Below the pieces are notes generated by a model, which had not been told where the DNA came from, ran no database searches, and saw nothing but the letters and a program-made list of their open reading frames with translations. 64,000 nucleotides of DNA. Origin: Desulfosarcina sp. BuS5. Lineage in GTDB: Bacteria > Desulfobacterota > Desulfobacteria > Desulfobacterales > BuS5. A program made the position numbers and the translations under genes. Location of the stretch: NCBI RefSeq assembly GCF_028752835.1, contig NZ_CP087952.1, positions 2,213,041 through 2,277,040 on the forward strand, read 5' to 3'. Below, one piece after another: positions 1-54,539 of the stretch. Position 1 is the stretch's first letter. Each line of letters opens with the position of its first letter.

Positions 1-1590
1 CTGTACCGTAAGCCAGTTTATACGTGTTAAAATAGCTGCCCCCAATAAAAGATTCATTGCAACAGTAACAGTCTTTCTGTTTTCAGGCTTTTCAAGAAAC
101 GACCCTTTAGCCCATTCATTAAAAGCTCCTATGGCCGGGCCGCACCATATCTGAAAATCTATTTTACGCGATTGATCACCCCGTATCGACCAGGCCGAAC
201 TCCGGCCCAGGTAAGAACGAAAAACAAGGGCCATTTTATGTTTAGGATCGTTTTCCGCCCGGGCAATCTGTTTTGGGTCATAATTAGCAAAAAAACCTTT
301 TGTCTGCTCCCATTCCTCATCAAGACTACATCTGAAAAAATCTCTTTCCAGGATCTTTTGCTGCATTTCAGGCAGATCGTCCAGTCCGCCATACCTGTTA
401 TACAGATTGTATAGTTTAGCGCTCTTTAAAGGAAACATGGTGCCCCGTTTCAGCACCTGAACCTTGACGCCCAGTTCAAACATGTCCGCTGCCGGAGACA
501 TGGTTACGTCAGCCTGCCTGGCATCTGCCAGCATTGCCTTCACAGCATCAGATGTGCCTGCTTCAATGCAGGCCTGGTTAATCGAGCCGGTCAACACATA
601 AGCGGCTCCCATGGCAAAGGCGGCGGCGGTCGACTCCGGGGTGGCTATACCGCCGCCCAGGCCGACGAAAACCGGTCTGGCTAATTTATACTTTGCGGCA
701 ACCCTGTCCCTGAGAGAAAGCATGGTAGGCAGCGTTGTAAAAGCAGGCCTGTTATCGGTATGCCCTCCGGAATCGGCTTCCGCTGTAAGAGCGTCCGCCA
801 TAGACACGGCACTTGACAGCTCAGCCTCTTCAGCCGTTATCATTCCCTTGTCAAGGAGTTGTTTAATGAATTTATCGGGCGGTGGAGAGAAAAATTTCTC
901 CGCGACCTCAACCCTGGAAACCTTGGCGACAATTCTGTTAGGGCATACTATCTCACCCATTGAGTCACGATGGATACCCTTTACCCTGAAATAAACAAGG
1001 GGCAAAGACAAATCCATAAATGCCGAAGCGCTTATGAGGTTTATACCTCTTTTTAAATAGAGTTTTATAGTAGCATCTTCAAGCTCGAAATTATTGGGGC
1101 TGTGTATTAAATTAAAACCAAAAGTAAAATCATTTAATCTGTTTTTAAGTCTGAATATGGCCTCATCAATCTTATCCAGCCCCAGCCCGGCAGCGCCGTA
1201 AAAACCCATCATACCTGAACGGCCGGCTTTTTCAACCATTTCAACGGATGTAATTCCATTGGCCATGGCCCCGGCGACATAAGCGTAACGTAAATTGAAT
1301 ATTTTTTTAAAATAAGGATCGCCCAAAGCGTCAGGATGCAATGGAGGGACATAAGCCGCCAGGGGATATGTTCCGGGATTGTCGGATTTTTCACCCGGGC
1401 ATACGCCCTGACTATTTTGCAAAGTGATTGTGCCTCCGCGCCCCAATAGAAGGCGTCCTTTTTTTCTGATAAGCACAACAGGCCGGATAACATCGAAAAT
1501 CGCCTTACGCAGGGCACTCTCCTCAAACAGGGGTTCCTCCTCACCCTGACTCCACCATCCTGCAAAAGTTCTGTTTTCAAATCTATTCAT
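1..1590 (-). CDS. pfaD: PfaD-family enoyl reductase, 3' end beyond the window
   Basis: The frame is open from an ATG at 1590 to the window edge (530 codons, no stop). It reads as a PfaD-type FMN-dependent TIM-barrel protein of the 2-nitropropane dioxygenase superfamily. PfaD proteins supply the enoyl-reductase activity of polyunsaturated fatty acid or related polyketide synthases. Visible marks are a GMMGFYGAAGLG segment near residues 126-137, a glycine-rich VGLGGGIATPES segment near 310-325, and a family-typical C-terminal stretch with FNEWAKGSF and EKPENRKT. The usual family length is about 530-560 residues, so only a few are missing. A TTGACA-type promoter lies upstream. Partner pfaA-C genes would lie outside the window; whether they exist is unknown. 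Confidence 0.85.
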   Translation of the reverse strand, partial: MNRFENRTFAGWWSQGEEEPLFEESALRKAIFDVIRPVVLIRKKGRLLLGRGGTITLQNSQGVCPGEKSDNPGTYPLAAYVPPLHPDALGDPYFKKIFNLRYAYVAGAMANGITSVEMVEKAGRSGMMGFYGAAGLGLDKIDEAIFRLKNRLNDFTFGFNLIHSPNNFELEDATIKLYLKRGINLISASAFMDLSLPLVYFRVKGIHRDSMGEIVCPNRIVAKVSRVEVAEKFFSPPPDKFIKQLLDKGMITAEEAELSSAVSMADALTAEADSGGHTDNRPAFTTLPTMLSLRDRVAAKYKLARPVFVGLGGGIATPESTAAAFAMGAAYVLTGSINQACIEAGTSDAVKAMLADARQADVTMSPAADMFELGVKVQVLKRGTMFPLKSAKLYNLYNRYGGLDDLPEMQQKILERDFFRCSLDEEWEQTKGFFANYDPKQIARAENDPKHKMALVFRSYLGRSSAWSIRGDQSRKIDFQIWCGPAIGAFNEWAKGSFLEKPENRKTVTVAMNLLLGAAILTRINWLTVQ

Positions 1591-1628
1591 ACTTCACTTT
1601 ATCACTGTAAAATTTCAATATACGCGGC

Positions 1629-1657
1629 TTTTTATAAGAGAAGAGACTATGTGTCAA
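1629..1657 (-). promoter_or_regulatory. Putative sigma-70 promoter for pfaD
   Basis: On the minus strand TTGACA (1652-1657) is followed after 17 nt by TAAAAA, or after 15 nt by TATAAA. It lies in the 86-bp gap between xerD and pfaD, so pfaD may be transcribed separately from the genes upstream. Inferred from sequence only. Confidence 0.45.
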
Positions 1658-1676
1658 GACAAGCAAATCGGGCAGC

Positions 1677-2573
1677 TCAGCCTCTGGGGTGATACTTTTT
1701 ATGCATTTTTACCAGATGCTCCCGGGCAACATGGGTATATATCTGTGTGGTTGAAATATCAACATGCCCAAGCATAACCTGGACGGTCCGAAGATCAGCG
1801 CCGCCTTCCAGCAGATGGCTTGCAAAAGAATGTCTTACGCTATGAGGTGTCACTTTTTTCACAATTCCCGCTTCAAGGGCATACTTTCGCAACAGCTTCC
1901 AGAAGCCCTGCCTTGTCATGGGGTTACCGGCCCTTGCAACGAAAAGATATCTGCTTAGATTTGTTTTTAAAAGTTTGGTACGCGCAGTCTTGATATAAAA
2001 CTCTATCTTATCTCTTGCATATTGCCCGATGGGGACAACCCTCTCTTTCGATCCCTTCCCTAAAACCCTCACAAAACATGCTTCCGTATTAATATCAACA
2101 GACCTAATATTAACAAGCTCCGAGACCCTGAGACCGGCCGCATAAAGGAGCTCCAGCATGGCCGCATTCCTGGCACCTGTCGCCCTGCTTGTATCCGGCA
2201 TCTCCAGGATACGTTGAATATCTTCCACAGACAGAACATCAGGAAGCTTGAATCCTGTTTTGGGCAGATCTATTATCTTTGTAGGATTAGCACTGATAAG
2301 CTTTTCCTGAGATAGAAACCTGTAAAATCCCCTTAAGGTAACAAGATGTCTGGCACGGGACCTTGCCCCTAATTTTTCCTTTCGTAAATCAATCAGATAT
2401 TTTAATATAACTGTAGTATCAGCTTCAGCAATATTTTCAATCAAGTTGTCCTGTAAAAAAACTGAATATCTGGCCAGATCCGACCCATAAGATTCGATCG
2501 TTCTGTCGGACAGGCCTTTCTCTATCATCAGATAATTCAAATATTGGTCAACAAAAACATCAGAATCTTTCAC
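1677..2573 (-). CDS. xerD: Tyrosine recombinase XerD
   Basis: A 298-residue tyrosine recombinase of XerC/XerD type, which resolves chromosome dimers at dif during division. The N-terminal SAM-like core-binding domain spans about residues 5-90 and the catalytic domain about 110-290. Catalytic residues are visible: R149 (GLRVSEL), K173 (GKGSKER), H244 and R247 (HSVR), H270 (LGH) and nucleophile Y279. The length is standard. The start is GTG with AGGA 7 nt upstream, inside the end of the peptidase gene; only 9 nt separate the two, which suggests cotranscription. An integron integrase is unlikely because the extra patch typical of IntI is not evident. Confidence 0.9.
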   Translation of the reverse strand: MKDSDVFVDQYLNYLMIEKGLSDRTIESYGSDLARYSVFLQDNLIENIAEADTTVILKYLIDLRKEKLGARSRARHLVTLRGFYRFLSQEKLISANPTKIIDLPKTGFKLPDVLSVEDIQRILEMPDTSRATGARNAAMLELLYAAGLRVSELVNIRSVDINTEACFVRVLGKGSKERVVPIGQYARDKIEFYIKTARTKLLKTNLSRYLFVARAGNPMTRQGFWKLLRKYALEAGIVKKVTPHSVRHSFASHLLEGGADLRTVQVMLGHVDISTTQIYTHVAREHLVKMHKKYHPRG

Positions 2574-2582
2574 ATCACTGTC

Positions 2583-3692
2583 CTATATAAAAACCACAGG
2601 TTCATGCATATTCAACACTTCAGCGCCATCCTCCCGCACCACCACCATATTCTCAATCCTTACACCGCCCCAGCCGGGTATATATATTCCTGGCTCAACC
2701 GTAAAGACCATCTGCGGTTCAAGTATGTTATTGGAAAGCGAACTTACCCTTGGAGGTTCATGCACGGCAAGTCCGACACCATGCCCTATGCCGTGACCAA
2801 ACCGTCCCTTAAAACCCATATCCTCAATATGCCCGCGCGCCACTGCATCCACATCTTTAGCATTCATCCCGGGTTTTATGGATGCAATCGCTTTCTGCTG
2901 TGCTTCCAAAACGGTGCTGTATACTTTTATAAATGTTTCATCAGGTTTTCCGATCAGAATCGTCCTGGAAATATCCGAGCAATAGCCATCCAGCTTTGCA
3001 CCCCAGTCGAACAGAATCGGTTCCCCTTCAGAACATCTCCTGTTTCCGGGTATGGCATGGGGCATGGCGCTGTTGGTACCGGACGCACAAATAACGGGGA
3101 AAGCCAAAGCATCGGCGCCATTTTCACGCAATCCTTTTTCAATTAACCAGGCAGCCTCATTTTCCGTAATACCCGGCATTATCATTTCGGAAACCTTGAT
3201 AAAAACCGCCTCTGAAATCGAAAGCGCTTTTTTCATTGCCCTGATTTCATCTTCATCTTTAATCAGGCGAAGGTTTTCAACCAAATTTTCAACAGCAACC
3301 AGCTCCACCCTCAGATTATCCTTATTCAGAGCATCCGAAATTCTGATGTGCTGCATACAGGACAAACGGATACTTTCAAATCCGAGTCTCTTAATATTAA
3401 GCCTGCGCAAAATAGAAGGAAGCTCATTTGCAAAATCTTTTTTATAACATACGATTTCAAAAAGAGCGGCTTCTTCAGCAGCCTGAATTTCAAAGCGTGA
3501 ATCGGTGACAAGTAGAAGGTCTTTTTCAGTAATTAAAAGTGCGCCGGCTGATTCATCAAACTGGGTGTCCTCTCCGGTATAACCGCTGAGATAACGTCTG
3601 TTTTCCTCCACGAGAACAAGCAGGCCGTCAATTCCCTTTTGAAAAATTGCTTTTCTAAGCTCGTTAATTCTGTTTTCGATTTTTTCTTTCAA
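2583..3692 (-). CDS. pepP: M24-family Xaa-Pro aminopeptidase
   Basis: A creatinase/prolidase-fold metallopeptidase that removes N-terminal residues preceding proline. An N-terminal domain (about residues 10-130) precedes the pita-bread catalytic domain. Dinuclear metal ligands are D229 (LFDWG), D240 (SDIS), H304 (GHGIGH), E333 (VEPG) and E347 (RIEN). The chosen start is TTG at 3692, because GAGGAG lies 4-5 nt upstream; a GTG at 3704 would overlap that ribosome site. The gene is probably in one operon with xerD downstream and the cysteine protein upstream. It could also be called prolidase or PepQ; the exact substrate is not shown by sequence. Confidence 0.85.
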   Translation of the reverse strand: MKEKIENRINELRKAIFQKGIDGLLVLVEENRRYLSGYTGEDTQFDESAGALLITEKDLLLVTDSRFEIQAAEEAALFEIVCYKKDFANELPSILRRLNIKRLGFESIRLSCMQHIRISDALNKDNLRVELVAVENLVENLRLIKDEDEIRAMKKALSISEAVFIKVSEMIMPGITENEAAWLIEKGLRENGADALAFPVICASGTNSAMPHAIPGNRRCSEGEPILFDWGAKLDGYCSDISRTILIGKPDETFIKVYSTVLEAQQKAIASIKPGMNAKDVDAVARGHIEDMGFKGRFGHGIGHGVGLAVHEPPRVSSLSNNILEPQMVFTVEPGIYIPGWGGVRIENMVVVREDGAEVLNMHEPVVFI

Positions 3693-3721
3693 GATACTCC
3701 TCACTGGATAAAAATTTTAAT

Positions 3722-4246
3722 TCAGAAGCTGGTTATCCTGATAAATTCATCCTCCATCCGACTCCTGCCGGTTTTTATTGCCTGCACAGCCTGACTAAAT
3801 TTTTCCTGAACACCGGAAGAGCTCCTGCGTAAGATTCTATTTTGGGGTGGACAAAGATAGAGTGTGCAAATCCAGGGCCGCTTTATTCGGGGGAGCGTAC
3901 ATCCCCTTTTACCCAGGTAACGGCAAGAATCTGCAGGTTGCTGAATAAGCTGGGCCGGGGGAATTTTTTCACCTGCAAGGCAAAAAAAAAGGAGATCCTT
4001 AAAATCAGCCCAAACCGTAGCCCTTGAACAGCATGGCTCGGGGCACCAGAGGCATGTCATAAAACATAATTCATCAAGAAGATGAAACAAAGATTTTAAA
4101 TGGCCTTTAACCTGTTCCGCCTGATTAAAGGCCATTGTCAAACGGTCTTTGTAAATATTTACCAGGTAATTAATTGAATCGCCGGCTTCCTCCCATAAAG
4201 CTATAGACCCCCAAGGCGGCAGCAAGGTGTGACTATTGACGGTCAT
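3722..4246 (-). CDS. YkgJ-like cysteine-cluster protein
   Basis: A 174-residue protein of unknown function. Its cysteines follow the YkgJ/UPF0153 Fe-S or zinc cluster pattern: a CxxCxxxCC group near residues 69-77, then C..GxC near 107-115 and RPxxC, with further cysteines in CTLYLC near 126-131. The family is predicted to bind a metal cluster. An AGGA site lies about 8 nt before the ATG. It sits between the FmdB gene (54 bp upstream) and the aminopeptidase in a same-strand run, near an Fe-S carrier (Mrp), which fits a metal role, but no activity can be assigned. Confidence 0.6.
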   Translation of the reverse strand: MTVNSHTLLPPWGSIALWEEAGDSINYLVNIYKDRLTMAFNQAEQVKGHLKSLFHLLDELCFMTCLWCPEPCCSRATVWADFKDLLFFCLAGEKIPPAQLIQQPADSCRYLGKRGCTLPRIKRPWICTLYLCPPQNRILRRSSSGVQEKFSQAVQAIKTGRSRMEDEFIRITSF

Positions 4247-4299
4247 GCATTATTCCTGATTTCCCTTTTTCCCCAACCTGGGGAAACTTATCATATGGA

Positions 4300-4509
4300 T
4301 CATCCTCCACCCTGTGGCGCGCAGGCAGGCGCTTTAAAACCGCCTGAACCTGACGGAATACCGCACGGCCTGAAATTCCCGGCTGAAATCAGTTTGGTCA
4401 CATCCTGATTCTTACATGCAGGACATACCGGCGCAGGATCATTTTCAGATAAAACCAACTCCTCAAATTCCCTGTTGCACTTATTACACATAAACTCATA
4501 AATAGGCAT
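4300..4509 (-). CDS. FmdB-family zinc ribbon protein
   Basis: A 69-residue protein starting MPIYEF, the hallmark of the FmdB/CxxC_CxxC_SSSS regulatory-protein family. Two CxxC pairs (CNKC and CPAC) should bind one zinc ion; the tail is rich in glycine and serine. The ATG at 4509 has GGAGGG 5-6 nt upstream. A start 21 nt further upstream is rejected because it would include that ribosome site. It begins 13 nt after the Mrp gene, so the two are very likely cotranscribed. The family was named from a formamidase regulator, but the function of most members is unknown. Confidence 0.85.
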   Translation of the reverse strand: MPIYEFMCNKCNREFEELVLSENDPAPVCPACKNQDVTKLISAGNFRPCGIPSGSGGFKAPACAPQGGG

Positions 4510-4522
4510 AATACCCTCCATT

Positions 4523-5365
4523 CTATACAAGTTTTGACAAATTGTCTGCTACTTGTTCAAATGCTTTGGTTACTTCCGAATCTTTAAATTGGTCTTGAAA
4601 AGAGCTGCCCGAGTCACCGCACAGCACTACATTCCGGTCAAAAGGAATCTTTCCAAGAAACCTGACACCAGCCTCAGCCGCTGTCTTCTCACCGCCCCCT
4701 GATCCGAATAAGTCCATCTTTTCCCCGCAGTGGGGACATGTAAAACCGCTCATGTTTTCTATGAGCCCAAAAACCTCCATCTTCAATGTTTTACAGAAAT
4801 TTAGCGATTTTCGCACATCTGCCAGTGAGACCTCCTGGGGGGTAGTTACAATGAGCGCCTTTGCATCAGAAATTACCTGCGCCACAGTTAAAGGCTCATC
4901 ACCGGTTCCCGGAGGAGCATCTATAATTAAAAAATCAAGCTCGCCCCACTCAACGTCGCCGATAAACTGATTTATAGCAGAATGCTTTATGGGACCTCTC
5001 CATATTATTGCATCATCCTTGTTAGGAATAAGCGATTCCACTGAAATAGCTCTAAGATTATCAGAATATCTCAAAGGGTTCAGTTTTTGATTTTTGCTCA
5101 AATCCGGTGTACCCTTTAATGCAAGCATCCTGGGAACATCAGGACCGTGAAGATCCACATCCATAAGGCCAACTTTATAACCCTTTTTTGAAAGAGCTAT
5201 AGCAGTATTGACGGATACGCTGGTTTTACCGACACCACCTTTGCCGCTCATTACGATCAGCTTATTCTTTATTTTTGCCAGTGAACTCTTTACAGCAGCA
5301 TCAGGATCCGGTTTTTGTTGTGGTTTGTTCGGCATAGAGCCTATATTAACATTCTTTGATTCCAT
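4523..5365 (-). CDS. mrp: Mrp/NBP35-type Fe-S carrier P-loop ATPase
   Basis: A 280-residue deviant-Walker ATPase of the Mrp/NBP35/ApbC family, which carries and delivers Fe-S clusters in the cytoplasm. The P-loop SGKGGVGKTS lies at residues 40-49, a DVDLHGPD switch near 70-77 and DAPPGTGD near 150. The cluster-binding CPHC motif follows in SGFTCPHCGEK. The ATG at 5365 has GGAGG 8 nt upstream; a TTG 15 nt further out overlaps that site and is rejected. It is the first gene of the run through xerD. A divergent spacer with a 16-bp palindrome separates it from the DUF1847 gene. Confidence 0.9.
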   Translation of the reverse strand: MESKNVNIGSMPNKPQQKPDPDAAVKSSLAKIKNKLIVMSGKGGVGKTSVSVNTAIALSKKGYKVGLMDVDLHGPDVPRMLALKGTPDLSKNQKLNPLRYSDNLRAISVESLIPNKDDAIIWRGPIKHSAINQFIGDVEWGELDFLIIDAPPGTGDEPLTVAQVISDAKALIVTTPQEVSLADVRKSLNFCKTLKMEVFGLIENMSGFTCPHCGEKMDLFGSGGGEKTAAEAGVRFLGKIPFDRNVVLCGDSGSSFQDQFKDSEVTKAFEQVADNLSKLV

Positions 5366-5444
5366 AACATCTGCCTCCAAATTTATATTTAACAGTTTGA
5401 TTATTTAAAAAGCCTTGATAGTTTTCCTTATATCATATATCTTT

Positions 5445-5460
5445 TGAAATTAATTTCAAG
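5445..5460. promoter_or_regulatory. 16-bp perfect palindrome in a divergent spacer
   Basis: TTGAAATTAATTTCAA is a perfect palindrome located between the divergent mrp and DUF1847 genes. Its position and symmetry suit an operator for a dimeric regulator, but AT-rich palindromes can arise by chance and no regulator is identified. Confidence 0.35.
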
Positions 5461-5558
5461 GTCATAAATAATAACAGCTGGAGCTCACTGGTGATAAGAG
5501 ATCAAAGGTATGACTGTTTGAAATTTTTAGTGAGCCCAAAGGAATAAGTGATGGTATT

Positions 5559-6242
5559 ATGGAAAAACTGAATGCTCAATGCGCCAAATGCCCCTATCCT
5601 GTCCAGGATCGACTTTGCAGAACAAAAGACGGGAAATCGCCCCCTTTTTGCCCGACCAAAAATAAAAGCGATCTTATTGAAAAATGTCTTGCGGAATATC
5701 AAAAACCGGATGTTCTCGAATTCGCAAAGCAGTCATCCATCCAGGAGGGCGAAGGCTATGGTCAAAAAGAACTTGGGTATGCTCATGTAAAACCTATCAC
5801 CCCCCGTATTCTTGAAGTGATTCAATTTGCCCGCAGGATGAATTATACCCGGCTGGGATTGGTGTTCTGTGTGGCTCTTAGGAAGGAAGCCAAGATTGTT
5901 GAAAAACTTTTTTCATCCAAAGGGTTTGATATGGTTTCGGTTATCTGCAAAGTGGGGCAGGTGCCAAAAGAATTAATCGGGATCAAGGATGAAGAAAAAA
6001 TAGCCATAGGATCATTCGAAACTATGTGTAATCCGATTTTGCAGGCCCTGCTTTTAAACAGCGAAAAAACAGAGTTTAACGTTCTGCTTGGTCTGTGTGT
6101 GGGGCATGATTCTCTTTTTTTCAAATATGCTGAGGCACCATGTACCGTGCTGGCGGTCAAAGATCGGGTCCTTTGCCATAACCCCCTGGGCGCGATATAT
6201 AATATTGATAGTTATTACAGATATCTGAAACAACCTGATTAA
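5559..6242 (+). CDS. DUF1847 metal-binding protein
   Basis: A 227-residue protein matching the DUF1847 family found in anaerobic bacteria and archaea. The N-terminus is cysteine-rich: CAKC at about residues 8-11, then a cysteine at about 20 and another near 31 in PPFCPT. Further cysteines occur in the C-terminal half, where a segment with LCVGHDSLFF is conserved. Family function is unknown and metal binding is only predicted. The ATG lacks an ideally spaced ribosome site (AGGA is about 17 nt upstream). It is monocistronic and divergent from mrp. Confidence 0.7.
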   Translation: MEKLNAQCAKCPYPVQDRLCRTKDGKSPPFCPTKNKSDLIEKCLAEYQKPDVLEFAKQSSIQEGEGYGQKELGYAHVKPITPRILEVIQFARRMNYTRLGLVFCVALRKEAKIVEKLFSSKGFDMVSVICKVGQVPKELIGIKDEEKIAIGSFETMCNPILQALLLNSEKTEFNVLLGLCVGHDSLFFKYAEAPCTVLAVKDRVLCHNPLGAIYNIDSYYRYLKQPD

Positions 6243-6342
6243 TATGAGGAATAATCGGAAGACCCTGCTTGAATATAAGGATTTATCAGCCGGACAAGAG
6301 GCTATTTTTCTCGTTTGTCGATCTCAGGCTCACCTACGGTAT

Positions 6343-6804
6343 TCAAAACATTTCATATTTCACAACCCTTCCGTCCAGACCGGCGTTGTGTAATGGTTTT
6401 TTCCAGGCGGACTTAAGGCCGATTTTCTTTATCATGTCCCGGTTTCCAAAAAAGAGATAAACATGGGATCCCTTACATCGCTTCTTTAAAAAATCACCCA
6501 AATTTTTATAAAAAACTTCTAACCCCGTATCCTCTTTCAGGCGAATCCCATATGGCGGATTACAAACGATCAGACTGTTTTCAATGCCTGATAGCTCATG
6601 CATATTTTTTTTCAATATGCTTATCCCGCCACCATCAGGGAGACAACGGCAATTGGCAGTGGCTGCTTTTACTGCAAGGCCAGCCTTATCACTGTCTGTG
6701 ATCAAACCTTTCGGCAGGCACCGTATTTTTTCATCAGATTGTGCCTTAATTTTTCGGTGCTCTCCCGCTACTACATTGATTATAAACCGAGCATGTTTAA
6801 TGTT
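6343..6804 (-). pseudogene. C-terminal remnant of an RlmL-like rRNA methyltransferase
   Basis: The frame from 6804 to 6343 encodes about 150 residues of a class I SAM-dependent RNA (guanine-N2) methyltransferase of the RlmL/YcbY or THUMP type. It has a GLITDSDKAGL segment (SAM-binding acidic loop), the catalytic NPPYG motif and a C-terminal FFGNRD segment. Full proteins have about 380 or more residues. Here the THUMP and first SAM-binding motifs are missing and a stop lies at 6805, only 37 bp from a 127-bp mobile repeat. It is interpreted as a gene truncated by element-associated deletion. Confidence 0.7.
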
Positions 6805-6841
6805 TTAATTGAAAGTTAACATAGCTTTTTGTTACATACTG

Positions 6842-6968
6842 CAGCAATTCCCGGTCATAAATAGCTTAACTTATTGGAATCATTGAACTTTCAATTTTAG
6901 AGTTTGCGAAAACTCTTGTCTGATAACATAATAATATCAGAGAGTTAAGACTCGTCCGGGAATTGCTG
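6842..6968. mobile_element. MITE family A, copy 1 (127 bp)
   Basis: A non-coding element with 13-bp terminal inverted repeats (CAGCAATTCCCGG at one end, its complement at the other). The 9-bp direct repeat TACATACTG flanks it on both sides (6833-6841 and 6969-6977), which shows it inserted by transposition. Two further copies lie at 22580 and 32617. It contains no ORF and must be moved in trans. Confidence 0.92.
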
Positions 6969-7066
6969 TACATACTGTTTATTTTTAATTCTGATTTGAT
7001 GCTTATTTTTAAAACAAACAAGGACTCATTTTTGCTTCTTGCTACCCAGTTTGGGAGGAAAAGATT

Positions 7067-7156
7067 ATGAGAAAATCATCAGATTGGAATCAACCTTGCC
7101 CGAACAAAAATTGTAAGTGCTATGGGCAAGTAAATCAAAGAAATATTAGTTCTATC
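7067..7156 (+). pseudogene. N-terminal fragment of an IS1-type transposase
   Basis: The ATG at 7067 has GGAGG about 9 nt upstream. About 30 codons follow, including CPNKNCKCYGQ, a zinc-finger start typical of IS1-related transposases. The frame then runs directly into the left end of the IS4-type element at 7157. The rest of the gene is not present on the far side, except possibly a short transposase tail shared with repeat C. Confidence 0.6.
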
Positions 7157-8474
7157 CAGTAATGTCCGGTTAGGTTTTTGCGTGTAGCTGGCAATGTTTT
7201 TGTTCTTTGAAAAAAAATGACTCTGTAGAGCTACCGGAATCACGAAGCTCATTTTGAATTTGTATCCTTAACTGCCTAACCCTTTTGATACTAACAGGTT
7301 CGCCATGATTTTTATGGCAATAAATTGCAAGAAGCAGGTAAGTAATGAGTCCTCTAAGGATTTGGACCATTAGCCCGTATTCACTCCTTGCAATGAGGTG
7401 GTACACTCGAAGATGGCGTTTCCACCATGCAAAAAAAATTTCGATGTTCCATCTGAGTTTATAAATCTGAGCGATTTGCTCTGCGGTCAAGTCCCTACAA
7501 TCCGTTGCTACCCAGTAATCAACACCATTTACACGATAACCTACAAGGCGGACAGATTTTTCAGTTTGATTATTGTTTTCCACAGTACCTAACAGAACAT
7601 CGGCATCATAAAAAACAATACTGTCAGGGTTAACCTCATGTTCTTTGATAAGCGTTTTGGTTGTACCGGCCTTTATCCGAATTACAAAGCTTTTGCCTTC
7701 AGCCTGCAGCAAATCAAAAAGGGCATGTTTTTGGTAACCTCGATCACCTACACCAGTTTGCCCGGGAGATAGCAATTGATTGACAAACGGTCTTTCAGCT
7801 CCTTTGCCGGCGGTAAGAAAAATTTTAGCTGGAATGCCCTGATTTAAATTAAAGCCAAGATGTACCTTAGCTTTGTTTGCCCCTTTTCGATAGTCAGCCC
7901 AGGTCATTGAGAGTACGGCATCAATGAATGAACCATCAAATGCAACAAGATTGCCGAGGTCAGCATGCTGATCAGGCAGTACATTAGAAGCTTCAATACT
8001 AAGTTTTTCAAATACATATTTTAATTGCTCGAGCCCTCTATTATTAATGGCTTCAGAAAAACTGCTTCTGCTGATTCCATTTTCAGGAGCAATGTTTTCA
8101 CGAGCGAAATCATCCTCTTTGAGCATTTGGATGAGATGGCGAGCTGATACATGTTCTTCAAGATGAAAAAAAATTAGTGCATTGAGTTGATCTTCGAAAG
8201 TCATTTTTAATGGCCTATCTCCTTTGGAAGTCAGAGGTGGAGCCTCAGAAGCAGTTTTTATAAACGGATGAGATAATTTAAAAAATGATGGTGAATAAAA
8301 TTTTTTCCGAGACGGTTTGAAACTGTACGGCATCTTGTAACTCCTTGTAATAATTGATAATATTACAAATTGTCACAAAAATTTTTCTTTGCTCGTCAAG
8401 TAAAAAATTCAGGTTTGGTCATTTTTTTTCACCATTTTTAACAGGTTATGCAAAAAGCTAACCGGACACTACTG
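7157..8474 (-). mobile_element. IS4-type insertion sequence, copy a (1.32 kb)
   Basis: A complete element bounded by inverted repeats of about 24 bp: CAGTAATGTCCGGTTAGG at the left, and the complement of CAGTAGTGTCCGGTTAG at the right. It carries one transposase gene on the minus strand. A related element with almost the same ends is at 17176-18482. No target duplication is visible, so one flank was probably deleted or rearranged after insertion. Confidence 0.88.
7170..8333 (-). CDS. IS4-family DDE transposase (387 aa)
   Basis: A cut-and-paste transposase. Catalytic aspartates lie in VAFDGSF and GVGDRGYQ. The glutamate lies in a Y-x2-R-x3-E-x6-K signature (YKLRWNIEIFFAWWK), diagnostic of the IS4 family. 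An N-terminal DUF4372-like segment contains MTFEDQLNALIFFHL. The gene fills the element and is undisrupted, so it may be active. It is clearly homologous to the 384-residue transposase at 17315 but diverged from it, so the two are separate isoforms and not recent duplicates. Confidence 0.9.
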   Translation of the reverse strand: MPYSFKPSRKKFYSPSFFKLSHPFIKTASEAPPLTSKGDRPLKMTFEDQLNALIFFHLEEHVSARHLIQMLKEDDFARENIAPENGISRSSFSEAINNRGLEQLKYVFEKLSIEASNVLPDQHADLGNLVAFDGSFIDAVLSMTWADYRKGANKAKVHLGFNLNQGIPAKIFLTAGKGAERPFVNQLLSPGQTGVGDRGYQKHALFDLLQAEGKSFVIRIKAGTTKTLIKEHEVNPDSIVFYDADVLLGTVENNNQTEKSVRLVGYRVNGVDYWVATDCRDLTAEQIAQIYKLRWNIEIFFAWWKRHLRVYHLIARSEYGLMVQILRGLITYLLLAIYCHKNHGEPVSIKRVRQLRIQIQNELRDSGSSTESFFFKEQKHCQLHAKT

Positions 8475-8888
8475 CAAAGAAATGGGACTTAAACTGGTTC
8501 CTTGTGAAATTTAATTTTGCCATAAGCAATTTATAAAATCGTTTGAGTGGATTACAGTAATCTGATTTGCTTTGAATTGGAAAATGAAGTCGAGAGTACA
8601 ACTGAAGCCTTTGAGCGCGAATATAACATGACTGGTCGGCCTTTTGCACAACTAACTGTTAGTCCTTCAGAGAAGGAACTACGCATATAAAACTTTTTTG
8701 ATATAGGCCGACATTTCTAAATTCATTGAAAAGCTGATTACCGCAATCTTATTATTAACCAAGGAACTGATTTTATTTATACAACATTGATAAATTACTA
8801 ATAATATTAATAATTTTAAGATTACCTTAAAATCAATGGTACCCCTACGCTTTTTTTAGGGGAGTGTGTTTCATATAAAAAAAAAAAA
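8475..8888 (+). repeat. Repeat family C, copy 1 (about 414 bp)
   Basis: A long non-coding repeat almost identical to 21291-21701 and to 32245-32763. It begins with the last 12 codons of a transposase reading frame (…GLKLVPCEI stop) and ends in GGGGAGTGTGTTTCAT followed by an A-run. It looks like the 3' terminal part of a mobile element. Copy 1 abuts the right end of the IS4-type element. Confidence 0.85.
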
Positions 8889-8936
8889 TAAAGTTAACAA
8901 TTCCATCAGTTGCGGTCAATTAAAAACAGGTAAAAC

Positions 8937-9144
8937 CTAAAACTCCGAGATAAGGATTTAAGCAAAGATAATAGTATGAAATACTAATTATATCAATATG
9001 TTAATTAAGTAAACTTGATAGCCACACACTCATACAAACACCTCTATTTATGCAATTACGCGCCTGTACGCGCTTTAAAACCCCTCGTAACGTAGGCGTT
9101 GAAAGCTACCTTTTTATTTAAAAATCCTTATATCGGAGTTTTAG
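8937..9144 (+). mobile_element. MITE family B, copy 1 (208 bp)
   Basis: A 208-bp non-coding element with inverted repeats of about 23 bp beginning CTAAAACTCCGATATAAGG (one mismatch here). It is flanked by AGGTAAAA on both sides, allowing one extra C at the left. The interior holds a GC-richer palindrome, GCGCCTGTACGCGC. The other copies are at 13136 and 14190. Confidence 0.9.
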
Positions 9145-9232
9145 AGGTAAAAGCAGAAAATTTTATTTCATTACCGCGCTTCTGCCGGTAAATTATAAAT
9201 CCGTTTTGCTCTATTGGAAGGTACTATCAATC

Positions 9233-9261
9233 TTGACAATATTGCGTATTTTTTATATGGA
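9233..9261 (+). promoter_or_regulatory. Putative promoter for adk
   Basis: TTGACA at 9233-9238 is followed after about 17 nt by TATGGA, or after 15 nt by TATATG. It lies about 75 bp before the adenylate kinase start, downstream of MITE B copy 1. The -10 element is weak. Confidence 0.4.
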
Positions 9262-9335
9262 TAACAGTCAAGTTTGAAAAAAAATGAATTAAATCCTATT
9301 TGAAAAGGATACAAGCAATTAAAAGGAGAAAATCT

Positions 9336-10010
9336 ATGAACATTCTGTTTTTTGGGCCTAACGGCAGTGGTAAGGGAACGCAGGGGGCAATATTAAAAGA
9401 AAAGTACAGTATAGCCCATATTGAATCAGGCGCAATTTTTCGTGAAAATATTTCTAACGGAACCGAACTCGGTGCAAAGGCAAAGGGCTATATAGACAAG
9501 GGTGACCTTGTACCTGATGAAATCACAATTCCCATGATTCTGGATCGCCTTAAACGCGATGACTGCAAAGGGGGATGGCTGCTTGACGGTTTTCCAAGAA
9601 ATAAAAATCAGGCCATAAAACTTGATGAATCATTAAAAGCGGCAGGGATTGCATTGGATATAGTTATTGAACTGCAACTCGACCGCGAGATTGCTAAAAA
9701 CAGGATAATGGGACGCCGGCTTTGTGCTAATGATAATAATCATCCGAATAATATTTTTATAGATGCGATTAAGCCGGATGGAGACAAGTGCCGTGTTTGC
9801 GGTGGTGATTTAACGAAAAGAGACGATGACCAAGATGAGGAGGCTATCAACAAACGGCATAATATTTATTATGATGCAAATGAAGGAACCCTTGCATCTT
9901 CATACTATTTTAAAGACCTGGCCGAAAAAGACGGGTCTGTCAAATATATTACCCTGGATGGCGCGCCTGGCGTTCAAGATGTTACGGCGGAACTGGTTTC
10001 AAAGCTTTAG
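9336..10010 (+). CDS. adk: Adenylate kinase
   Basis: A 224-residue cytoplasmic kinase that interconverts ATP and AMP with two ADP. The Walker A GPNGSGKGTQ lies at residues 7-16, the AMP-binding LLDGFPR near 86-92, and a long LID with three cysteines that could bind metal (LCAND, CRVCGG) near 128-160. The arginine-aspartate motif KRDDDQDE follows. The ATG at 9336 has AAAGGAG 8 nt upstream; the more upstream in-frame start has no such site. In many bacteria adk lies in the spc ribosomal operon after secY. Here it is alone, and the spc operon in this window has none. Confidence 0.92.
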   Translation: MNILFFGPNGSGKGTQGAILKEKYSIAHIESGAIFRENISNGTELGAKAKGYIDKGDLVPDEITIPMILDRLKRDDCKGGWLLDGFPRNKNQAIKLDESLKAAGIALDIVIELQLDREIAKNRIMGRRLCANDNNHPNNIFIDAIKPDGDKCRVCGGDLTKRDDDQDEEAINKRHNIYYDANEGTLASSYYFKDLAEKDGSVKYITLDGAPGVQDVTAELVSKL

Positions 10011-10020
10011 CAGCAATTAA

Positions 10021-10060
10021 ATAAACTAAAGCCCGGCCTTCCGGCCGGGCTTTAGTTTAT
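10021..10060. terminator. Bidirectional terminator between adk and ppdK
   Basis: A perfect inverted repeat with 18-bp arms (core AAAGCCCGGCC, loop TTCC, GGCCGGGCTTT) lies between the converging genes. It has AT-rich flanks and T-containing tails on both sides. Confidence 0.9.
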
Positions 10061-10072
10061 AACTTTTTATTT

Positions 10073-12805
10073 TTATTCAGACTGTTCATCCCTAAGGGCT
10101 GCATGGGCGGCAGCCAAGCGGGCAACAGGAACTCTGAAGGGTGAGCAGGAAACATAGTTTAATCCCAGATTGTGGCAAATAAAAATCGATTCCGGGTCAC
10201 CTCCGTGTTCACCGCATATACCGCATTCCAGGTCGGGTTTTACGCTCCTTCCTTTGGTAACGGCCATCTCCATCAACTGTCCCACACCATCCTTGTCTAT
10301 TGTGGCAAACGGATTAGCCTCTAATATTTTAGTGCTTATATATTCTATCAGGAAAGCCGCTTCGGCATCATCCCTGGAGATTCCGAATGTGGTCTGCGTC
10401 AAATCATTGGTTCCAAAAGAGAAGAAGGATGCATATTTCGCTATCTGATCAGCAGTCAAAGCTGCGCGGGGGATCTCGATCATAGTGCCGAATTTATACT
10501 CTATCTTCACATTTTGTTCCTTCATCACTATTTTGGCTTCTTTTTCAAGCACGGCCCTCTGCACCTTCAACTCATTGCAATGGCTGGTAAGCGGAATCAT
10601 AATTTCCGGAAAGACTTTTATCCCCTTTTTGCTGACGGCACAAGCCGCTTCAAATATAGCGCGAACCTGCATAGTGGTAAGCTCCGGAATGCAGATCCCT
10701 AGACGCACTCCTCTGAAACCGAGCATCGGGTTGGTCTCATCCAGGCTTTCGACCCGCCTTAAAAGTTTTTCTTTTTTCTTAAAGCTTTGCAGTAACTGGT
10801 TTATTTTATCCAGAGTATCCGCATGACTGAGGCGTATTTTCAGATCCGCCAGTTCACGGACTAGTTGTGCGCGATCGGGGAGAAATTCATGGAGGGGGGG
10901 GTCGATCAGGCGGATAATAACCGGCAGACCGTCCATTTCGCTGAAAATGCCTTCAAAATCTTCGCGCTGAAAGGGCAAAAGTGCACTAATAGCTTCCCTC
11001 TTCTCACTCGGCAGATCCGCCATGATCATCCTTTGAACGAATATAAGTCGTTCAGGATTTAAAAACATATGCTCCGTGCGGCAAAGGCCGATGCCCTCTG
11101 CGCCGTAACTGCGCGCTCTCTTTGCATCGACCGGATAATCCGCATTGGCCCATACTCCGAGACGCCGAAATTTATCAGCCCATGAAAGTATAGTCATCAG
11201 CCATTCATCATTTATGTCAGGCACGGTGGACTCGATTTCGCCGATATATACTTCTCCGGTTGTCCCGTCTATTGAAATCTTGTCCCCTTCATTAATTATA
11301 ATATCACCAATGGCAAGCCTGCGCTTGTTCATCTCGATAACCATCTCCGAGAGGCCGACCACTGCAGGTTTTCCGAATTGGCGCGCCACGAGCGCCGCAT
11401 GGCTCGTACGGCCACCCCGGCTGGTAAGGATACCGTTTGCGGCAAGCATTCCATGCACGTCATCCGGTTTGGTTTCCGGACGAACCATTATGACGTCTTT
11501 TCCGTCCTTGCTCCATTCCTGGGCCAGGTCGGCGGTCAAGGCAATCACTCCACAAGCTGCGCCTGGGGAGACATTAAGACCTTTCCCAAAAAAATTCCCA
11601 GATTTTCTGGCGGCTTTTGTAGCTTCGAGCTTAAACTGGGGATGTAAAAAGAAATCGACCTGCTCTGGTTTTACCCGCATCACGGCTTCCTTTTGGGTGA
11701 TCAATTCTTCTCTAGCCATTTCAACCGCTATACGAACAGCAGCCTGGGCCGTACGTTTTCCATCACGGGTTTGGAGCATCCACAACTTGCCGTTTTCAAT
11801 AGTAAATTCTACATCCTGCATTTCACGATAGTGATTTTCAAGAAGTCGTGCAATCTTTTCGAACTCCGCATATGCTTCCGGAGCATCCTCTTTCATTAAA
11901 GAGATATCGTTGGTCATGCGTGTTCCGGCTACAACATCCTCGCCTTGGGCGTTTATCAGGTAATCGCCCTCTATCCTGTTTTCCCCTGTTGAACCATTGC
12001 GTGTCATGGCAACGCCGGTGGCGCTAGTGTCACCCATATTGCCGAAAACCATGGTTACGATATTAACCGCCGTTCCAAGATCATGAGAAATATTGGCGGC
12101 ATTCCTGTAAGCGATTGCCCGCTTGCCGTTCCAGCTTTTAAAGACTGCTTCGGTTGCAAGCATCAATTGTGTATGGGGATCATCGGGAAATTCAAGTTTG
12201 GTCTCGCTTTTAAAAATTTTTTTAAACCTACCAATCACCAATTCCCAGGCATCGGCGGTGAGTTCGGAATCAGTCTCCACCCCGGCTTTGGCCCTCGCCT
12301 CTGTGATAACATCTTCGAAAAGATCATCGTCAACACCCATAACGACAGATCCGAACATCTGTATCAGGCGGCGGTAGGAATCATACACAAATCGCGGATC
12401 TTGCGTAAGTTTAATCAAAGCCCCGGCAGTTGTATTGTTTAAACCAATATTCAGGACAGTATCCATCATCCCAGGCATCGAAAATTTTGCGCCTGAGCGG
12501 CACGATACAAGCAGGGGGTTTTCAAGGCCGCCGAATGTTTTGCCTGTTAAAGACTCAACTTTATCCATCTCCCGAAGCACTTGATCCCACATACCTTCAG
12601 GGAATATCTCTCCTAATTCGATAAACTTGTTGCATGCCTCGGTGGTTATGGTAAATCCGGGAGGAACAGGGACGCCTATCCTTTCCATCTCGGCCAGGTT
12701 GGCGCCTTTTCCGCCTAGCAGCGTCCGCACATCATCCCATTTCCCTCCGATATAATCTTCAGCCTGTTTAACTTGATCGAAAAAATATACCCATTTTTTT
12801 TCCAT
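10073..12805 (-). CDS. ppdK: Pyruvate, phosphate dikinase
   Basis: A 910-residue enzyme of standard length that interconverts pyruvate, ATP and phosphate with phosphoenolpyruvate, AMP and diphosphate. The N-terminal ATP-grasp nucleotide domain contains GGKGANLAEM near residue 32. The swivelling phosphohistidine domain carries GGRTSHAALVAR, with its catalytic histidine near residue 470. The C-terminal PEP/pyruvate barrel has ECGICGEHGGDP with the catalytic cysteine near 850. AAAGGA lies 6 nt before the ATG. It converges on adk at a shared terminator. PEP synthase is excluded by the TSHAA context and the length. Confidence 0.95.
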   Translation of the reverse strand: MEKKWVYFFDQVKQAEDYIGGKWDDVRTLLGGKGANLAEMERIGVPVPPGFTITTEACNKFIELGEIFPEGMWDQVLREMDKVESLTGKTFGGLENPLLVSCRSGAKFSMPGMMDTVLNIGLNNTTAGALIKLTQDPRFVYDSYRRLIQMFGSVVMGVDDDLFEDVITEARAKAGVETDSELTADAWELVIGRFKKIFKSETKLEFPDDPHTQLMLATEAVFKSWNGKRAIAYRNAANISHDLGTAVNIVTMVFGNMGDTSATGVAMTRNGSTGENRIEGDYLINAQGEDVVAGTRMTNDISLMKEDAPEAYAEFEKIARLLENHYREMQDVEFTIENGKLWMLQTRDGKRTAQAAVRIAVEMAREELITQKEAVMRVKPEQVDFFLHPQFKLEATKAARKSGNFFGKGLNVSPGAACGVIALTADLAQEWSKDGKDVIMVRPETKPDDVHGMLAANGILTSRGGRTSHAALVARQFGKPAVVGLSEMVIEMNKRRLAIGDIIINEGDKISIDGTTGEVYIGEIESTVPDINDEWLMTILSWADKFRRLGVWANADYPVDAKRARSYGAEGIGLCRTEHMFLNPERLIFVQRMIMADLPSEKREAISALLPFQREDFEGIFSEMDGLPVIIRLIDPPLHEFLPDRAQLVRELADLKIRLSHADTLDKINQLLQSFKKKEKLLRRVESLDETNPMLGFRGVRLGICIPELTTMQVRAIFEAACAVSKKGIKVFPEIMIPLTSHCNELKVQRAVLEKEAKIVMKEQNVKIEYKFGTMIEIPRAALTADQIAKYASFFSFGTNDLTQTTFGISRDDAEAAFLIEYISTKILEANPFATIDKDGVGQLMEMAVTKGRSVKPDLECGICGEHGGDPESIFICHNLGLNYVSCSPFRVPVARLAAAHAALRDEQSE

Positions 12806-14441: not shown

Positions 14442-14604
14442 TGCTAGTTCAATAACGCTGAAGTTTTAAAGGCTGGGTATCTCTCCCCGGTCTTTTTTTT
14501 AGGGAAAAACCTGGAAGAGCCGCACTGGCAGGGGCACGATGGGTCGTGCTTCTACGAAGGTTTTGACAGATAACGGATTGAAATTATTTAAGTGGAATTC
14601 TATA
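14429..14604. repeat. Probable palindromic repeat F, divergent copy
   Basis: The ends TATAGATTC… and …GAATTCTATA are inverted, and the right half has GACAGATAACGGATTGAAATT, resembling other F copies (GATAACGC…AATTATTT). The interior contains the small hairpin GCACGATGGGTCGTGC. At 176 bp it is longer than the typical 105-125 bp. Confidence 0.45.
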
Positions 14605-14912: not shown

Positions 14913-15031
14913 TATAGATTGTCACATAAATAATTTCACTGCGTTATCGGTCGTCGGAGTATTACAATACGCCTTACTCCATATGTCCTTGCGCCAAATT
15001 TTAAAATCAGGTAATTATCTGACAATCTATA
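14913..15031 (-). repeat. Palindromic repeat F, copy 1 (119 bp)
   Basis: The ends TATAGATTGTC are perfect inverted repeats. Read on the minus strand it closely matches 18867-18988 and 45437-45542, including the core ATACTCCGACGACCGATAAC. It is non-coding. Confidence 0.85.
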
Positions 15032-18866: not shown

Positions 18867-18988
18867 TATAGATTGCCAGATATTTACCCCTCTTTTATAA
18901 AATTTGGCACAAGGCCAGAGGGAGGCAGGTCTATTGTAATACTCAGACGACTGATAACTCAGTGAAATTATTTATGTGACAATCTATA
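18867..18988 (+). repeat. Palindromic repeat F, copy 2 (122 bp)
   Basis: The ends TATAGATTG(C/T)C are inverted. The interior AAGGCCAGAGGGAGGC, then GACGACTGATAAC and GTGAAATTATTTATGTGAC, matches the copies at 14913 and 45437. Confidence 0.85.
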
Positions 18989-25648: not shown

Positions 25649-26325
25649 CACTTCCCCACCTTTCCGATCAAGATAGTTCAATTCTTAATCATCGGTACTA
25701 TGATCTGCTAAGACTTCCGAATGTTTATCTCAGGTTCGTTCGCTCTTCGCTATCCTCCCCTGATACCTTGTATCGCCCATCTTTTAATGTTTGTGTTTCT
25801 GCCAATGGCAGACTCGTTGCAAGGCGGGACATTCCTATGCAACGCCGGGATTTCGCTTGCGCTGGATTTCCTGTTACCGTTCTTTTTACCCAAGGAAACA
25901 TCCGGGTCTCCCAAGTTCCCGAGCTACCCCTTTGAGTACATGCCCTGGTCTAAGACCCCGGTGGTGTCCTGAATACTTGCCTTAGCATATTCAGGACTGC
26001 TGCCTTCCGCTGTCTCCAAAGCGTCGGCTTTTTCCTGCAAGCAGGATTATCACAATGACCACAACCATACATTTTTCGGGGCTCAATACAGAGCCTGCAA
26101 TCTTGCTCCGTCCAGCTCCAGACTCCCGTTACCGGGTTTACCTGTGGACTTCGCTACTGACCTGCTGGTTAGTCTTTAGTCAGGTGGGACTATCTTAACA
26201 TCAATGCCAGAGCAAGCCCTGCAGAGATGAAGGAAACAAACCGTTTCCCGAGCACCCACTTGGTAACAATATCGAGTTTCAAAGACCTTGTGTCTTATCC
26301 CAACGATTCGGATTTATCTTGGCAC
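24963..26325 (-). mobile_element. Group II intron, 5' portion, truncated by an IS
   Basis: Reading the minus strand from 26325, the sequence begins GTGCC (group II 5' end) and continues for about 680 nt of structured RNA. A typical segment with GAAGTCTTAGCAGATCATAGTACC precedes the intron-encoded protein gene. It ends at the IS4-type element boundary (24962), so domains IV-VI are missing and it cannot splice or move by itself. Its upstream exon is a half attC-like site. Confidence 0.82.
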
Positions 26326-27660: not shown

Positions 27661-27800
27661 GTTCCAGGTAGGAGCATCGGTTACCCGACGCCCCCCCTAC
27701 AGACCCGTACGTGAAGATTTCCCTCATACGGTTCCTCGGTTCAAATCCTTTTTACCGGATTATCAACCAAACAGGCGACACCCCGTTTGGCGTATAACTT
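27661..27800 (-). ncRNA. Group II intron 3' end (domains V and VI)
   Basis: On the minus strand GAACCGTATGAGGGAAATC and TTCACGTACGGGTC form the hairpin of a group II domain V. A domain VI-like stem (GCGTCGGGTAACCGATGC) and an end in AC, abutting TCGGAC, follow. No reverse-transcriptase frame precedes it; the sequence upstream belongs to an IS1-type transposase remnant. It is therefore a separate 3' relic. Confidence 0.75.
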
Positions 27801-43913: not shown

Positions 43914-43971
43914 GTGGCTTTCCTCCTTAGTCCTATTTATAGTCCTATAGATTGTCAACTACATAATTTCA

Positions 43972-44340
43972 CTAAAAAACCAACCCAGCTTCACGTGCTC
44001 CTTCAGATACTGCTTTAACTCGACCATGATATAAAAAACCATTACGATCGAAAACAACCTTTGTTAATCCTTTTTCAATTGCTCGTCCGCCCAAAAGTTT
44101 GCCGACATAATTAGCAACCGCCACTTTGCTTTCAAATTGAGGTTGTTCTTTAGTCGCCGGCTCAAGGCTTGAAGCAGCAACAAGCGTGTGACCGGATGTA
44201 TCATCAACAACCTGTGCATATATATGTTTTGCACTACGAAATACAGTTAACCTTGGCCGCTCCGATGTTCCTGTCAATCTCTTACGAACTCTCTTTTTTC
44301 TTTTCAAACGCGCCTGTTTTTTTAAATCCTGCGAACCCAT
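43972..44340 (-). CDS. rplR: 50S ribosomal protein L18
   Basis: 122 residues with [20 protein letters not shown] and the C-terminal [15 protein letters not shown] motif that binds 5S rRNA. AAGGGAAG lies upstream of the ATG. The 58 bp to rpsE contain a half copy of palindromic repeat F (CTATAGATTGTC at 43945). Confidence 0.97.
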
Positions 44341-45436: not shown

Positions 45437-45542
45437 TATAGATTGTCAGATAATAAATTTCACAAGGCCAGAGGGGAGGAAGGCGTATTGTGATACTCCA
45501 ACGACCGATAACGCAGTGAAATTATTTATGTGACAAGCTATA
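45437..45542 (+). repeat. Palindromic repeat F, copy 3, in the rpsN-rpsH spacer
   Basis: Ends TATAGATTGTC and GACAAGCTATA. The core has AAGGCCAGAGGGGAGG and ACGACCGATAACGCAGTG, as in copies at 14913 and 18867. It is transcribed within the ribosomal operon, where it would form an RNA hairpin. Confidence 0.88.
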
Positions 45543-46384: not shown

Positions 46385-46510
46385 CTATAAATTTTCAAAT
46401 AATTAATTTAACAAGGATAAAGGGAAACCCATTAGGGGAGACGTAATTTTAGTACGTCGACCGAAGGTTATGACCGATAACAGATTAAAATTATTTAGAT
46501 AAAAATCCAC
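46385..46510. repeat. Palindromic repeat F, divergent copy, in the rplX-rplE spacer
   Basis: It begins CTATAAATTTTC and contains ACAAGG, AGGGGAGACG, CGACCGAAGG and GACCGATAACAG before AAAATTATTTAG, following the order of conserved blocks in the better copies. Confidence 0.65.
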
Positions 46511-48222: not shown

Positions 48223-48350
48223 CCTATAAATTTTCAGATAATTAATTTTGTTGCGTTATCGCTCAAAACATTATCTCGACGCAAAGCCAGTACGCCTCCT
48301 AAGCTTTTCTCTATAGATTGTGAAATTAATTATCTAAAAGCCCATAAATA
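48223..48350 (-). repeat. Palindromic repeat F, divergent copy, in the rpsC-rplP spacer
   Basis: Left TATAAATTTTCAGATAATTA and the complement of the right end (CTTTTAGATAATTAATTTC) are inverted. The core read on the minus strand has AGGAGGCGTACTGG and GAGCGATAACGCAAC. Confidence 0.7.
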
Positions 48351-51559: not shown

Positions 51560-51665
51560 ATTGTTTATAATTAGATTTTTATAGCTCTTAAAACAACTTT
51601 TTTATCAAGCCATCACGGTTAATAAAAAAATTATAGATTTTCAGATAATTATTTGATTTTAAAAT
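51560..51665. repeat. Degenerate palindromic sequence in the rplC-rplD spacer
   Basis: The 152-bp spacer contains TTATAGATTTTCAGATAATTA (one end of a family F repeat) and a partner-like TTTTTATAGCTC at the other side. The interior does not align well with the other copies, so it is treated as a decayed copy. Confidence 0.4.
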
Positions 51666-51671
51666 TTATAT

Positions 51672-54436: not shown

Positions 54437-54539
54437 TATAGACTTTAAGATAAAAATTTTAGAGTTCGCCATCGGTCGTAGGATCATATAATTCCATTAC
54501 CCATCCGGCCTTACCAAAATCATTATCTTAAAGTCTATA
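54437..54539 (-). repeat. Palindromic repeat F-like copy in the rpsL-rpsG spacer
   Basis: Inverted ends TATAGACTTTAAGATAA match over 17 bp. The core read on the minus strand contains AAGGCCGGATGGG and ACGACCGATGGCG, parallel to AAGGCCAGAGGG and ACGACCGATAACG of the other copies. Confidence 0.75.

What the first reader, a model, noticed from the sequence alone, without database searches (positions are those of the whole stretch)
45437..45542. Palindromic repeat family F sits in spacers of the essential ribosomal protein operon
Copies with inverted ends and a shared core (AAGGCC…, …CGACCGATAAC) occur between rpsZ and rpsH, rplX and rplE, rpsC and rplP, and rpsL and rpsG, with decayed halves next to rpsE and rplC. 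The same family lies free at 14913 and 18867. Each copy in the operon would add an RNA hairpin to a transcript that normally has compact spacers, so it may act as an RNA processing, stability or stoichiometry element. Alternatively it is simply tolerated.
Basis: partly seen in the sequence, partly recalled or inferred. Interest (0 to 1): 0.62.

Follow-up and report, generated by a model that had tools for sequence, protein, structure and literature searches.

The report
Mobile hairpin repeats in ribosomal operon
Short hairpin-shaped "hitchhiker" DNA elements, about 240 of them in this bacterium's genome, have repeatedly jumped into the gaps between ribosomal protein genes; they come and go between close relatives, so they look like tolerated mobile DNA rather than a built-in control switch, although the fold at their centre is unusually well preserved.

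Summary
Window 45437-45542 is a 106-bp inverted-repeat element (TATAGATTGTCA...TGACAAGCTATA) with about 240 genome copies, extrapolated from 97 in a 40% sample. The stem arms covary strongly. It is best read as a Correia-like MITE: TATAG/CTATA ends, an empty site in a congener with TA duplicated, near-identical copies, all 97 sampled copies intergenic. Three congeneric ribosomal operons show turnover: two own copies are absent in congener G002, two G002 copies survive here only as remnants, one copy is unique to G001, and one old shared copy has lost most of its fold. A conserved RNA-processing or stoichiometry role is therefore not supported; tolerated insertion is. Unresolved and more interesting: the core internal loop (5' AAGGC / 3' GATAACGCAG) is kept while its stems change sequence but stay paired. 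The same core recurs in 35 of 291 genomes of the order, inside at least two MITE types with unrelated ends. No mobilising transposase was found: no DDE_3 (IS630) here or in three close relatives, and no autonomous copy. Paired stems alone can arise by template switching; a kept unpaired loop is harder to explain that way.

The parts
45437..45542 (+). Near-intact MITE copy in the rpsZ-rpsH spacer (operon is transcribed on the - strand). Absent in congener G002, where the site reads CCATT-TA-TAGCTTTT.
   Evidence: (124 bits)
46386..46509 (+). Old, decayed copy in the rplX-rplE spacer, shared with congener G002, absent in G001 (genes overlap there).
48225..48346 (-). Diverged copy in the rpsC-rplP spacer; absent in congeners G002 and G001.
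54437..54539 (-). Copy in the rpsL-rpsG spacer, subfamily with arms TATAGACTTTAAGATAA; strong hairpin (z -7.3).
43946..43972 (-). Terminal remnant next to the rpsE start; the complete copy is still present in G002 at the same place.
51632..51671 (+). Terminal remnant in the rplC-rplD spacer; a complete copy is still present in G002, none in G001.
14913..15031 (-). Free copy of the 119-nt variant (left arm with an extra ACCTGATTTTAAAATTTGG stretch).
18867..18988 (+). Free copy of the longer variant.
14543..14604 (+).

Best explanation
[quoted passage not shown] Shown by the sequences: full copies are mostly 105-106 or 119-130 bp with imperfect terminal inverted repeats of about 27 bp, a TA target duplicated on insertion (one clean case), copies spread as near-identical insertions, 97 of 97 sampled copies between genes, and both gain and loss between congeners. 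Inferred: a transposase acting in trans, not found in this genome, cuts at the TA-flanked ends and inserts the element at TA-containing sites; coding insertions are removed by selection; spacers of the ribosomal operon tolerate copies, which then decay. Each transcribed copy forms a long hairpin, whose effect on the mRNA is incidental and untested.
For: Copies: 289 end matches versus 0 in the control; 39 further copies at 84-97% identity to the query among the 40 scored candidates; 97 copies in a 1.624-Mb sample, so about 240 in the genome. Precise insertion: the rpsZ-rpsH spacer in G002 reads CCATT-TA-TAGCTTTTG, and in the own genome CCATC-TA-[TAGCTTG...CAATCTA]-TA-TAGCTTTTA. Tandem copies share a TATA junction, as expected when one copy inserts into the terminal TA of another. 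Turnover across G002 and G001. All 97 copies are intergenic although genes cover 81% of the sample, by my own gene caller. 13 of 97 copies supply the stop codon of a neighbouring gene. The old shared copy has lost most of its fold (z -1.7) while the new one keeps it (z -5.7).
Against: No DDE_3 (IS630-type) transposase in this genome or in G001-G003, and no pair of matching ends around a gene in the 40% sample, so the mobiliser is unknown. The TA duplication rests on one clean empty site plus tandem junctions. Arms and inner stems covary and an internal loop is kept, which a plain deletion-derivative MITE does not need. Copies lie opposite to transcription more often than chance (38 vs 16 outside the window), which is unexplained.
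Confidence: 0.85

Rival explanations
1. The hairpins are RNA processing, stability or stoichiometry elements of the ribosomal operon, kept by selection for that role.
For: Strong hairpins in RNA; covarying stems; 4 copies in 17.1 kb against 0.8-1.0 expected; Correia hairpins are known RNase III substrates (PMC2649163, PMC10969869).
Confidence: 0.05
2. The core fold is a structure-recognised module (folded DNA, or RNA) that the mobility machinery or a host protein reads: stems are free to change sequence, the internal loop AAGGC / GATAACGCAG is not, and the module was exchanged between different MITE backbones. This adds to the MITE reading rather than replacing it.
For: 53 double-change cells versus 14.6 in shuffles, slid controls 2-8. 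Inner hairpins of different sequence fold with z < -1.5 in 27 of 30. The same loop lies in TATAG-ended elements and in CCCGGATATTTCA-ended elements. 35 of 291 genomes of the order have three or more copies, controls near zero.
Against: Template switching can by itself keep palindrome arms complementary (PMC8794818, PMC7202029). The pattern used to collect many remote copies fixes the loop letters, so their conservation there is partly imposed by the search. No binding protein is known.
Confidence: 0.3
3. A REP/RAYT-type or other HUH (Y1) hairpin element.
For: 32 Y1_Tnp matches in the own genome; hairpin with bulges.
Against: No GTAG or CGTC foot as in REPs (definition from the PMC3733652 abstract); symmetric TATAG/CTATA ends and a TA duplication are not expected for Y1 transposition (established knowledge); the Y1 loci inspected show no matching pair of ends around the gene.
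Confidence: 0.05

Closest known systems
Correia repeat enclosed elements (CREE, nemis) of Neisseria (PMC2649163)
   Same: TATAG-beginning inverted repeats, about 105 bp (104-108) plus a longer class, over 100 copies per genome, target duplication, insertion differences between strains, transcript hairpin.
   Different: Repeat and core sequences differ (Correia: TATAG[CT]GGATTAA...); order-wide spread with exchanged stems; no RNase III, IHF or promoter role tested here.
TATAG-ended MITEs of Candidatus Thiomargarita nelsonii (PMC4853749)
   Same: TATAG ends, long hairpin, Correia-like, many copies, parental IS not found.
ERIC / RU elements of enterobacteria (PMC2759123, PMC10969869)
   Same: About 100-170 bp, palindromic, intergenic, can affect mRNA.
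   Different: No sequence comparison was made; different hosts, and the constant loop with exchanged stems is not mentioned in the passages read.
REP elements (PMC3733652)
   Same: Intergenic palindromes in high copy number.
   Different: REPs are 20-40 bp and carry a GTAG or CGTC tag; this family is 105-130 bp with TA-flanked inverted repeats.

Membership tests
MITE (general) | Short, no coding capacity, terminal inverted repeats | tested here: met
   105-130 bp, arms of about 27 bp
MITE (general) | Target-site duplication / precise empty site | tested here: met
   One clean empty site with TA duplicated at rpsZ-rpsH; a second empty site (rpsC-rplP) too diverged to read exactly
MITE (general) | High copy number with near-identical copies | tested here: met
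MITE (general) | Parental autonomous element with the same ends (usual, not required) | tested here: inconclusive
   None found in 40% of the genome; no DDE_3 in G000-G003; ends of the main resident IS unrelated. A lost or foreign parent is not excluded
IS630/Tc1-mariner derivative | TA target duplication | tested here: met
   one clean case plus tandem junctions
IS630/Tc1-mariner derivative | Ends match an IS630 transposon | tested here: not met
   DDE_3 loci in other carriers have other ends or none recognised; so it is not filed as an IS630 derivative
Correia elements | TATAG[CT]GGATTAA... repeat sequence, Neisseria host | tested here: not met
   Repeat is TATAGATTGTCA...; nearest relatives are Desulfobacterales. 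It works like a Correia element, it is not one
Correia elements | RNase III cutting, IHF binding, promoter at ends | not testable with these tools
   No RNA data; promoter scan of the operon shows no excess over shuffles
Rfam RNA families | Match to a curated model | tested here: not met
   No match over the element at gathering score in the window, nor a credible one at E up to 10 in six loci
REP | GTAG or CGTC tag, 20-40 bp | tested here: not met
   definition from the PMC3733652 abstract

The most novel reading that the evidence does not exclude
A mobile-DNA superfamily of this order (probably Desulfobacterales) in which a folded hairpin, not a fixed sequence, is what is recognised: the internal loop (AAGGC / GATAACGCAG) is constant, the stems are replaced while staying paired, and the same fold is carried by MITEs with unrelated ends and targets.
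Probability: 0.25. Interest if true: 0.65.

Novelty: new variant of a known kind. Interest (0 to 1): 0.42.

Why it matters
It explains why an essential operon carries palindromes: recent, tolerated MITE insertions with gains and losses that can be placed between congeners. It also gives a natural experiment on how hairpins in ribosomal protein mRNA are tolerated. The wider superfamily, with paired but freely changing stems around a constant loop in unrelated MITE backbones, is not described in the papers found. It could separate two explanations of compensatory change: selection on a fold, and template-switch mutation.

Tried and rejected
Rfam at gathering and permissive thresholds: nothing credible. 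A 937-bp pair of facing ends at G000:C1:3035569-3036505 looked like an autonomous element, but proved to be two separate MITEs flanking an apparent toxin-antitoxin pair. IS630 transposases: none in the own genome or in G001-G003; those of other carriers have other ends. DDE_Tnp_1: over 100 matches in the own genome, but the 1.3-kb IS with about 40 copies has ends CAGTAGTGTCCGGTTA, unrelated. Promoter scan of part of the operon: no excess. Search for the family outside the order: only one genome (G535) with more than one match; a scan of Gammaproteobacteria could not be run because the tool takes no locus as centre. Paper searches found no description of this family. The whole genome was not available as a file, so a 40% sample was used.

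Full report
WHAT IS THERE. Window 45437-45542 lies in the spacer between rpsZ and rpsH of a ribosomal protein operon transcribed on the - strand. It reads TATAGATTGTCAGATAATAAATTTCACAAGGCCAGAGGGGAGGAAGGCGTATTGTGATACTCCAACGACCGATAACGCAGTGAAATTATTTATGTGACAAGCTATA. The two ends are an imperfect inverted repeat. The best RplE relatives are Desulfobacterales / Deltaproteobacteria MAGs at 72-80% identity, the first from an EthSRB1 bin, so a Desulfobacterales host is an inference.

COPY NUMBER. A pattern of the ends alone finds 151 + 138 places in the 4.18-Mb genome at up to 3 mismatches, and none for the reversed control. A core pattern finds 58 against 0. In a 1.624-Mb sample (40% of the genome, taken at roughly even steps, window included) iterated nhmmer finds 97 distinct elements, hence about 240 in the genome. 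Thirty aligned copies agree on a 105-nt unit. Lengths cluster at 105-106 and 119-130.

POSITION. By a simple hexamer gene caller of mine (approximate), all 97 are intergenic although genes cover 81% of the sample. In 13 of 97, the end of the element supplies the TAG or TAA stop codon of a neighbouring gene. In gaps between genes of one direction, the element lies opposite to transcription 38 times and with it 16 times outside the window (with the window 40 to 19, P 0.009). I have no explanation for that bias. The operon holds 4 copies in 17.1 kb against 0.8-1.0 expected (P 0.008-0.018, post hoc); one of 78 other 20-kb stretches also holds 4.

COMPARISON WITH CONGENERS. Two genomes of the same genus were read across the operon (G002 mostly 92-100% amino-acid identity, G001 about 66-99%). 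rpsZ-rpsH: own genome filled, G002 empty. G002 reads CCATT-TA-TAGCTTTTG and the own genome CCATC-TA-[TAGCTTGTC...GACAATCTA]-TA-TAGCTTTTA, a precise insertion with TA duplicated (read from the sequences; the automatic two-sequence alignment places its gap badly at the left end). rpsC-rplP: own genome filled, G002 and G001 without it, junction too diverged to read. rplX-rplE: filled in both own genome and G002, absent in G001. rplC-rplD and rplR-rpsE: complete in G002, a remnant here, absent in G001. rpsE-rpmD: a copy only in G001. rpsL-rpsG: filled here, not covered in the others. The old shared rplX-rplE copy folds with z -1.7 here, the new rpsZ-rpsH copy with z -5.7. This is gain, decay and loss, not a conserved operon element.

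FOLD AND COVARIATION. As single strands, the consensus and its complement fold at -36.3 and -32.8 kcal/mol (z -7.3 and -6.4). On 33 equal-length copies (28 distinct; own genome and three relatives), 97.8% of cells are paired, and 53 cells have changes on both sides against 14.6 in shuffles and 2-8 with slid partners. Nearly all of this is in the arms, for example GATTGTC/GACAATC, GACCGTC/GACGGTC, GATTTTC/GAAAATC. Shared ancestry inflates such counts. Template switching between palindrome arms can also keep pairing without selection on a fold (PMC8794818, PMC7202029). So covariation here does not prove an RNA function.

THE WIDER FAMILY. A covariance model finds the family in G001, G002, G003 and, more thinly for most, in five genomes of other families of the order. 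In relatives the arms are quite different sequences yet complementary, around the same internal loop. The pattern CAAGGCN{24,52}GATAACRCAG hits 88 of 291 genomes of the order; by my count of that table 35 have three or more hits (own genome 90, others up to 52). The reversed control is near zero, except one genome with 12 control hits. Single hits are near chance level. Outside the order only one sampled genome (G535, 3 hits) has more than one. Inner hairpins of 30 different sequences, typed from these outputs, fold better than mononucleotide shuffles: z < -1.5 in 27 of 30. A caution: the pattern fixes the loop letters, so loop conservation in those remote copies is partly built into the search; the own-genome copies and those were not collected that way. 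In G207 and G268 the same core sits in a longer element with ends TTAGCCCGGATATTTCA...TGAAATATCCGGGTTAG; several copies show TTAG/TTAG or CTAA/CTAA at the two ends, suggesting a YTAR-like duplication. So the core is shared by at least two MITE types with unrelated ends.

THE MOBILISER. TA duplication points to IS630/Tc1-type transposition, but no DDE_3 transposase is found in the own genome or in G001-G003. DDE_3 loci of other carriers do not have these ends, and no autonomous pair of ends was found in the sample. The own genome has over 100 DDE_Tnp_1 and 32 Y1_Tnp matches; the main 1.3-kb IS has unrelated ends. The mobiliser is therefore unknown, perhaps lost or of another kind.

COMPARISON WITH THE KNOWN. 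It works like a Correia element: TATAG ends, 104-108 bp class, over 100 copies, target duplication, transcript hairpin (PMC2649163). It is not one by sequence. TATAG-ended Correia-like MITEs are also reported from Thiomargarita (PMC4853749); their sequence was not at hand. RNase III cutting of Correia hairpins is known (PMC10969869), but is untested here. No paper found in six searches describes this family, though the library lacks most subscription journals.

VERDICT. Real and well beyond chance; ordinary in kind (a MITE), new as a family, with an unusual constant loop in changing stems that deserves a test.

Noticed in passing
L045 (G000:C1:3080001-3100000), positions 532-11841: A 24-mer recurs every 1881 bp seven times, so probably about seven tandem copies of an 1881-bp unit; the tandem repeat tool is limited to periods up to 500.
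   Followed up: no
window 25946-26193 (-) and 27662-27736 (-): Rfam group II intron matches (RF02005 and RF00029); on the - strand their order suggests parts of two introns.
   Followed up: no
L031 570-688 and 1388-1506: Two MITE copies in inverted orientation flank what looks like a toxin-antitoxin gene pair.
   Followed up: partly
own genome, about 40 places, e.g. L317-L339: A 1.3-kb IS with ends CAGTAGTGTCCGGTTA in about 40 near-identical copies, a recent expansion.
   Followed up: partly
97 sampled elements (window, L032-L049, L196-L255): Orientation bias against the direction of transcription (38 vs 16 outside the window) and 13 elements that supply a neighbour's stop codon.
   Followed up: partly
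G207 and G268, L256-L275: A second MITE type (CCCGGATATTTCA ends, YTAR-like flanks) carrying the same core hairpin.
   Followed up: partly
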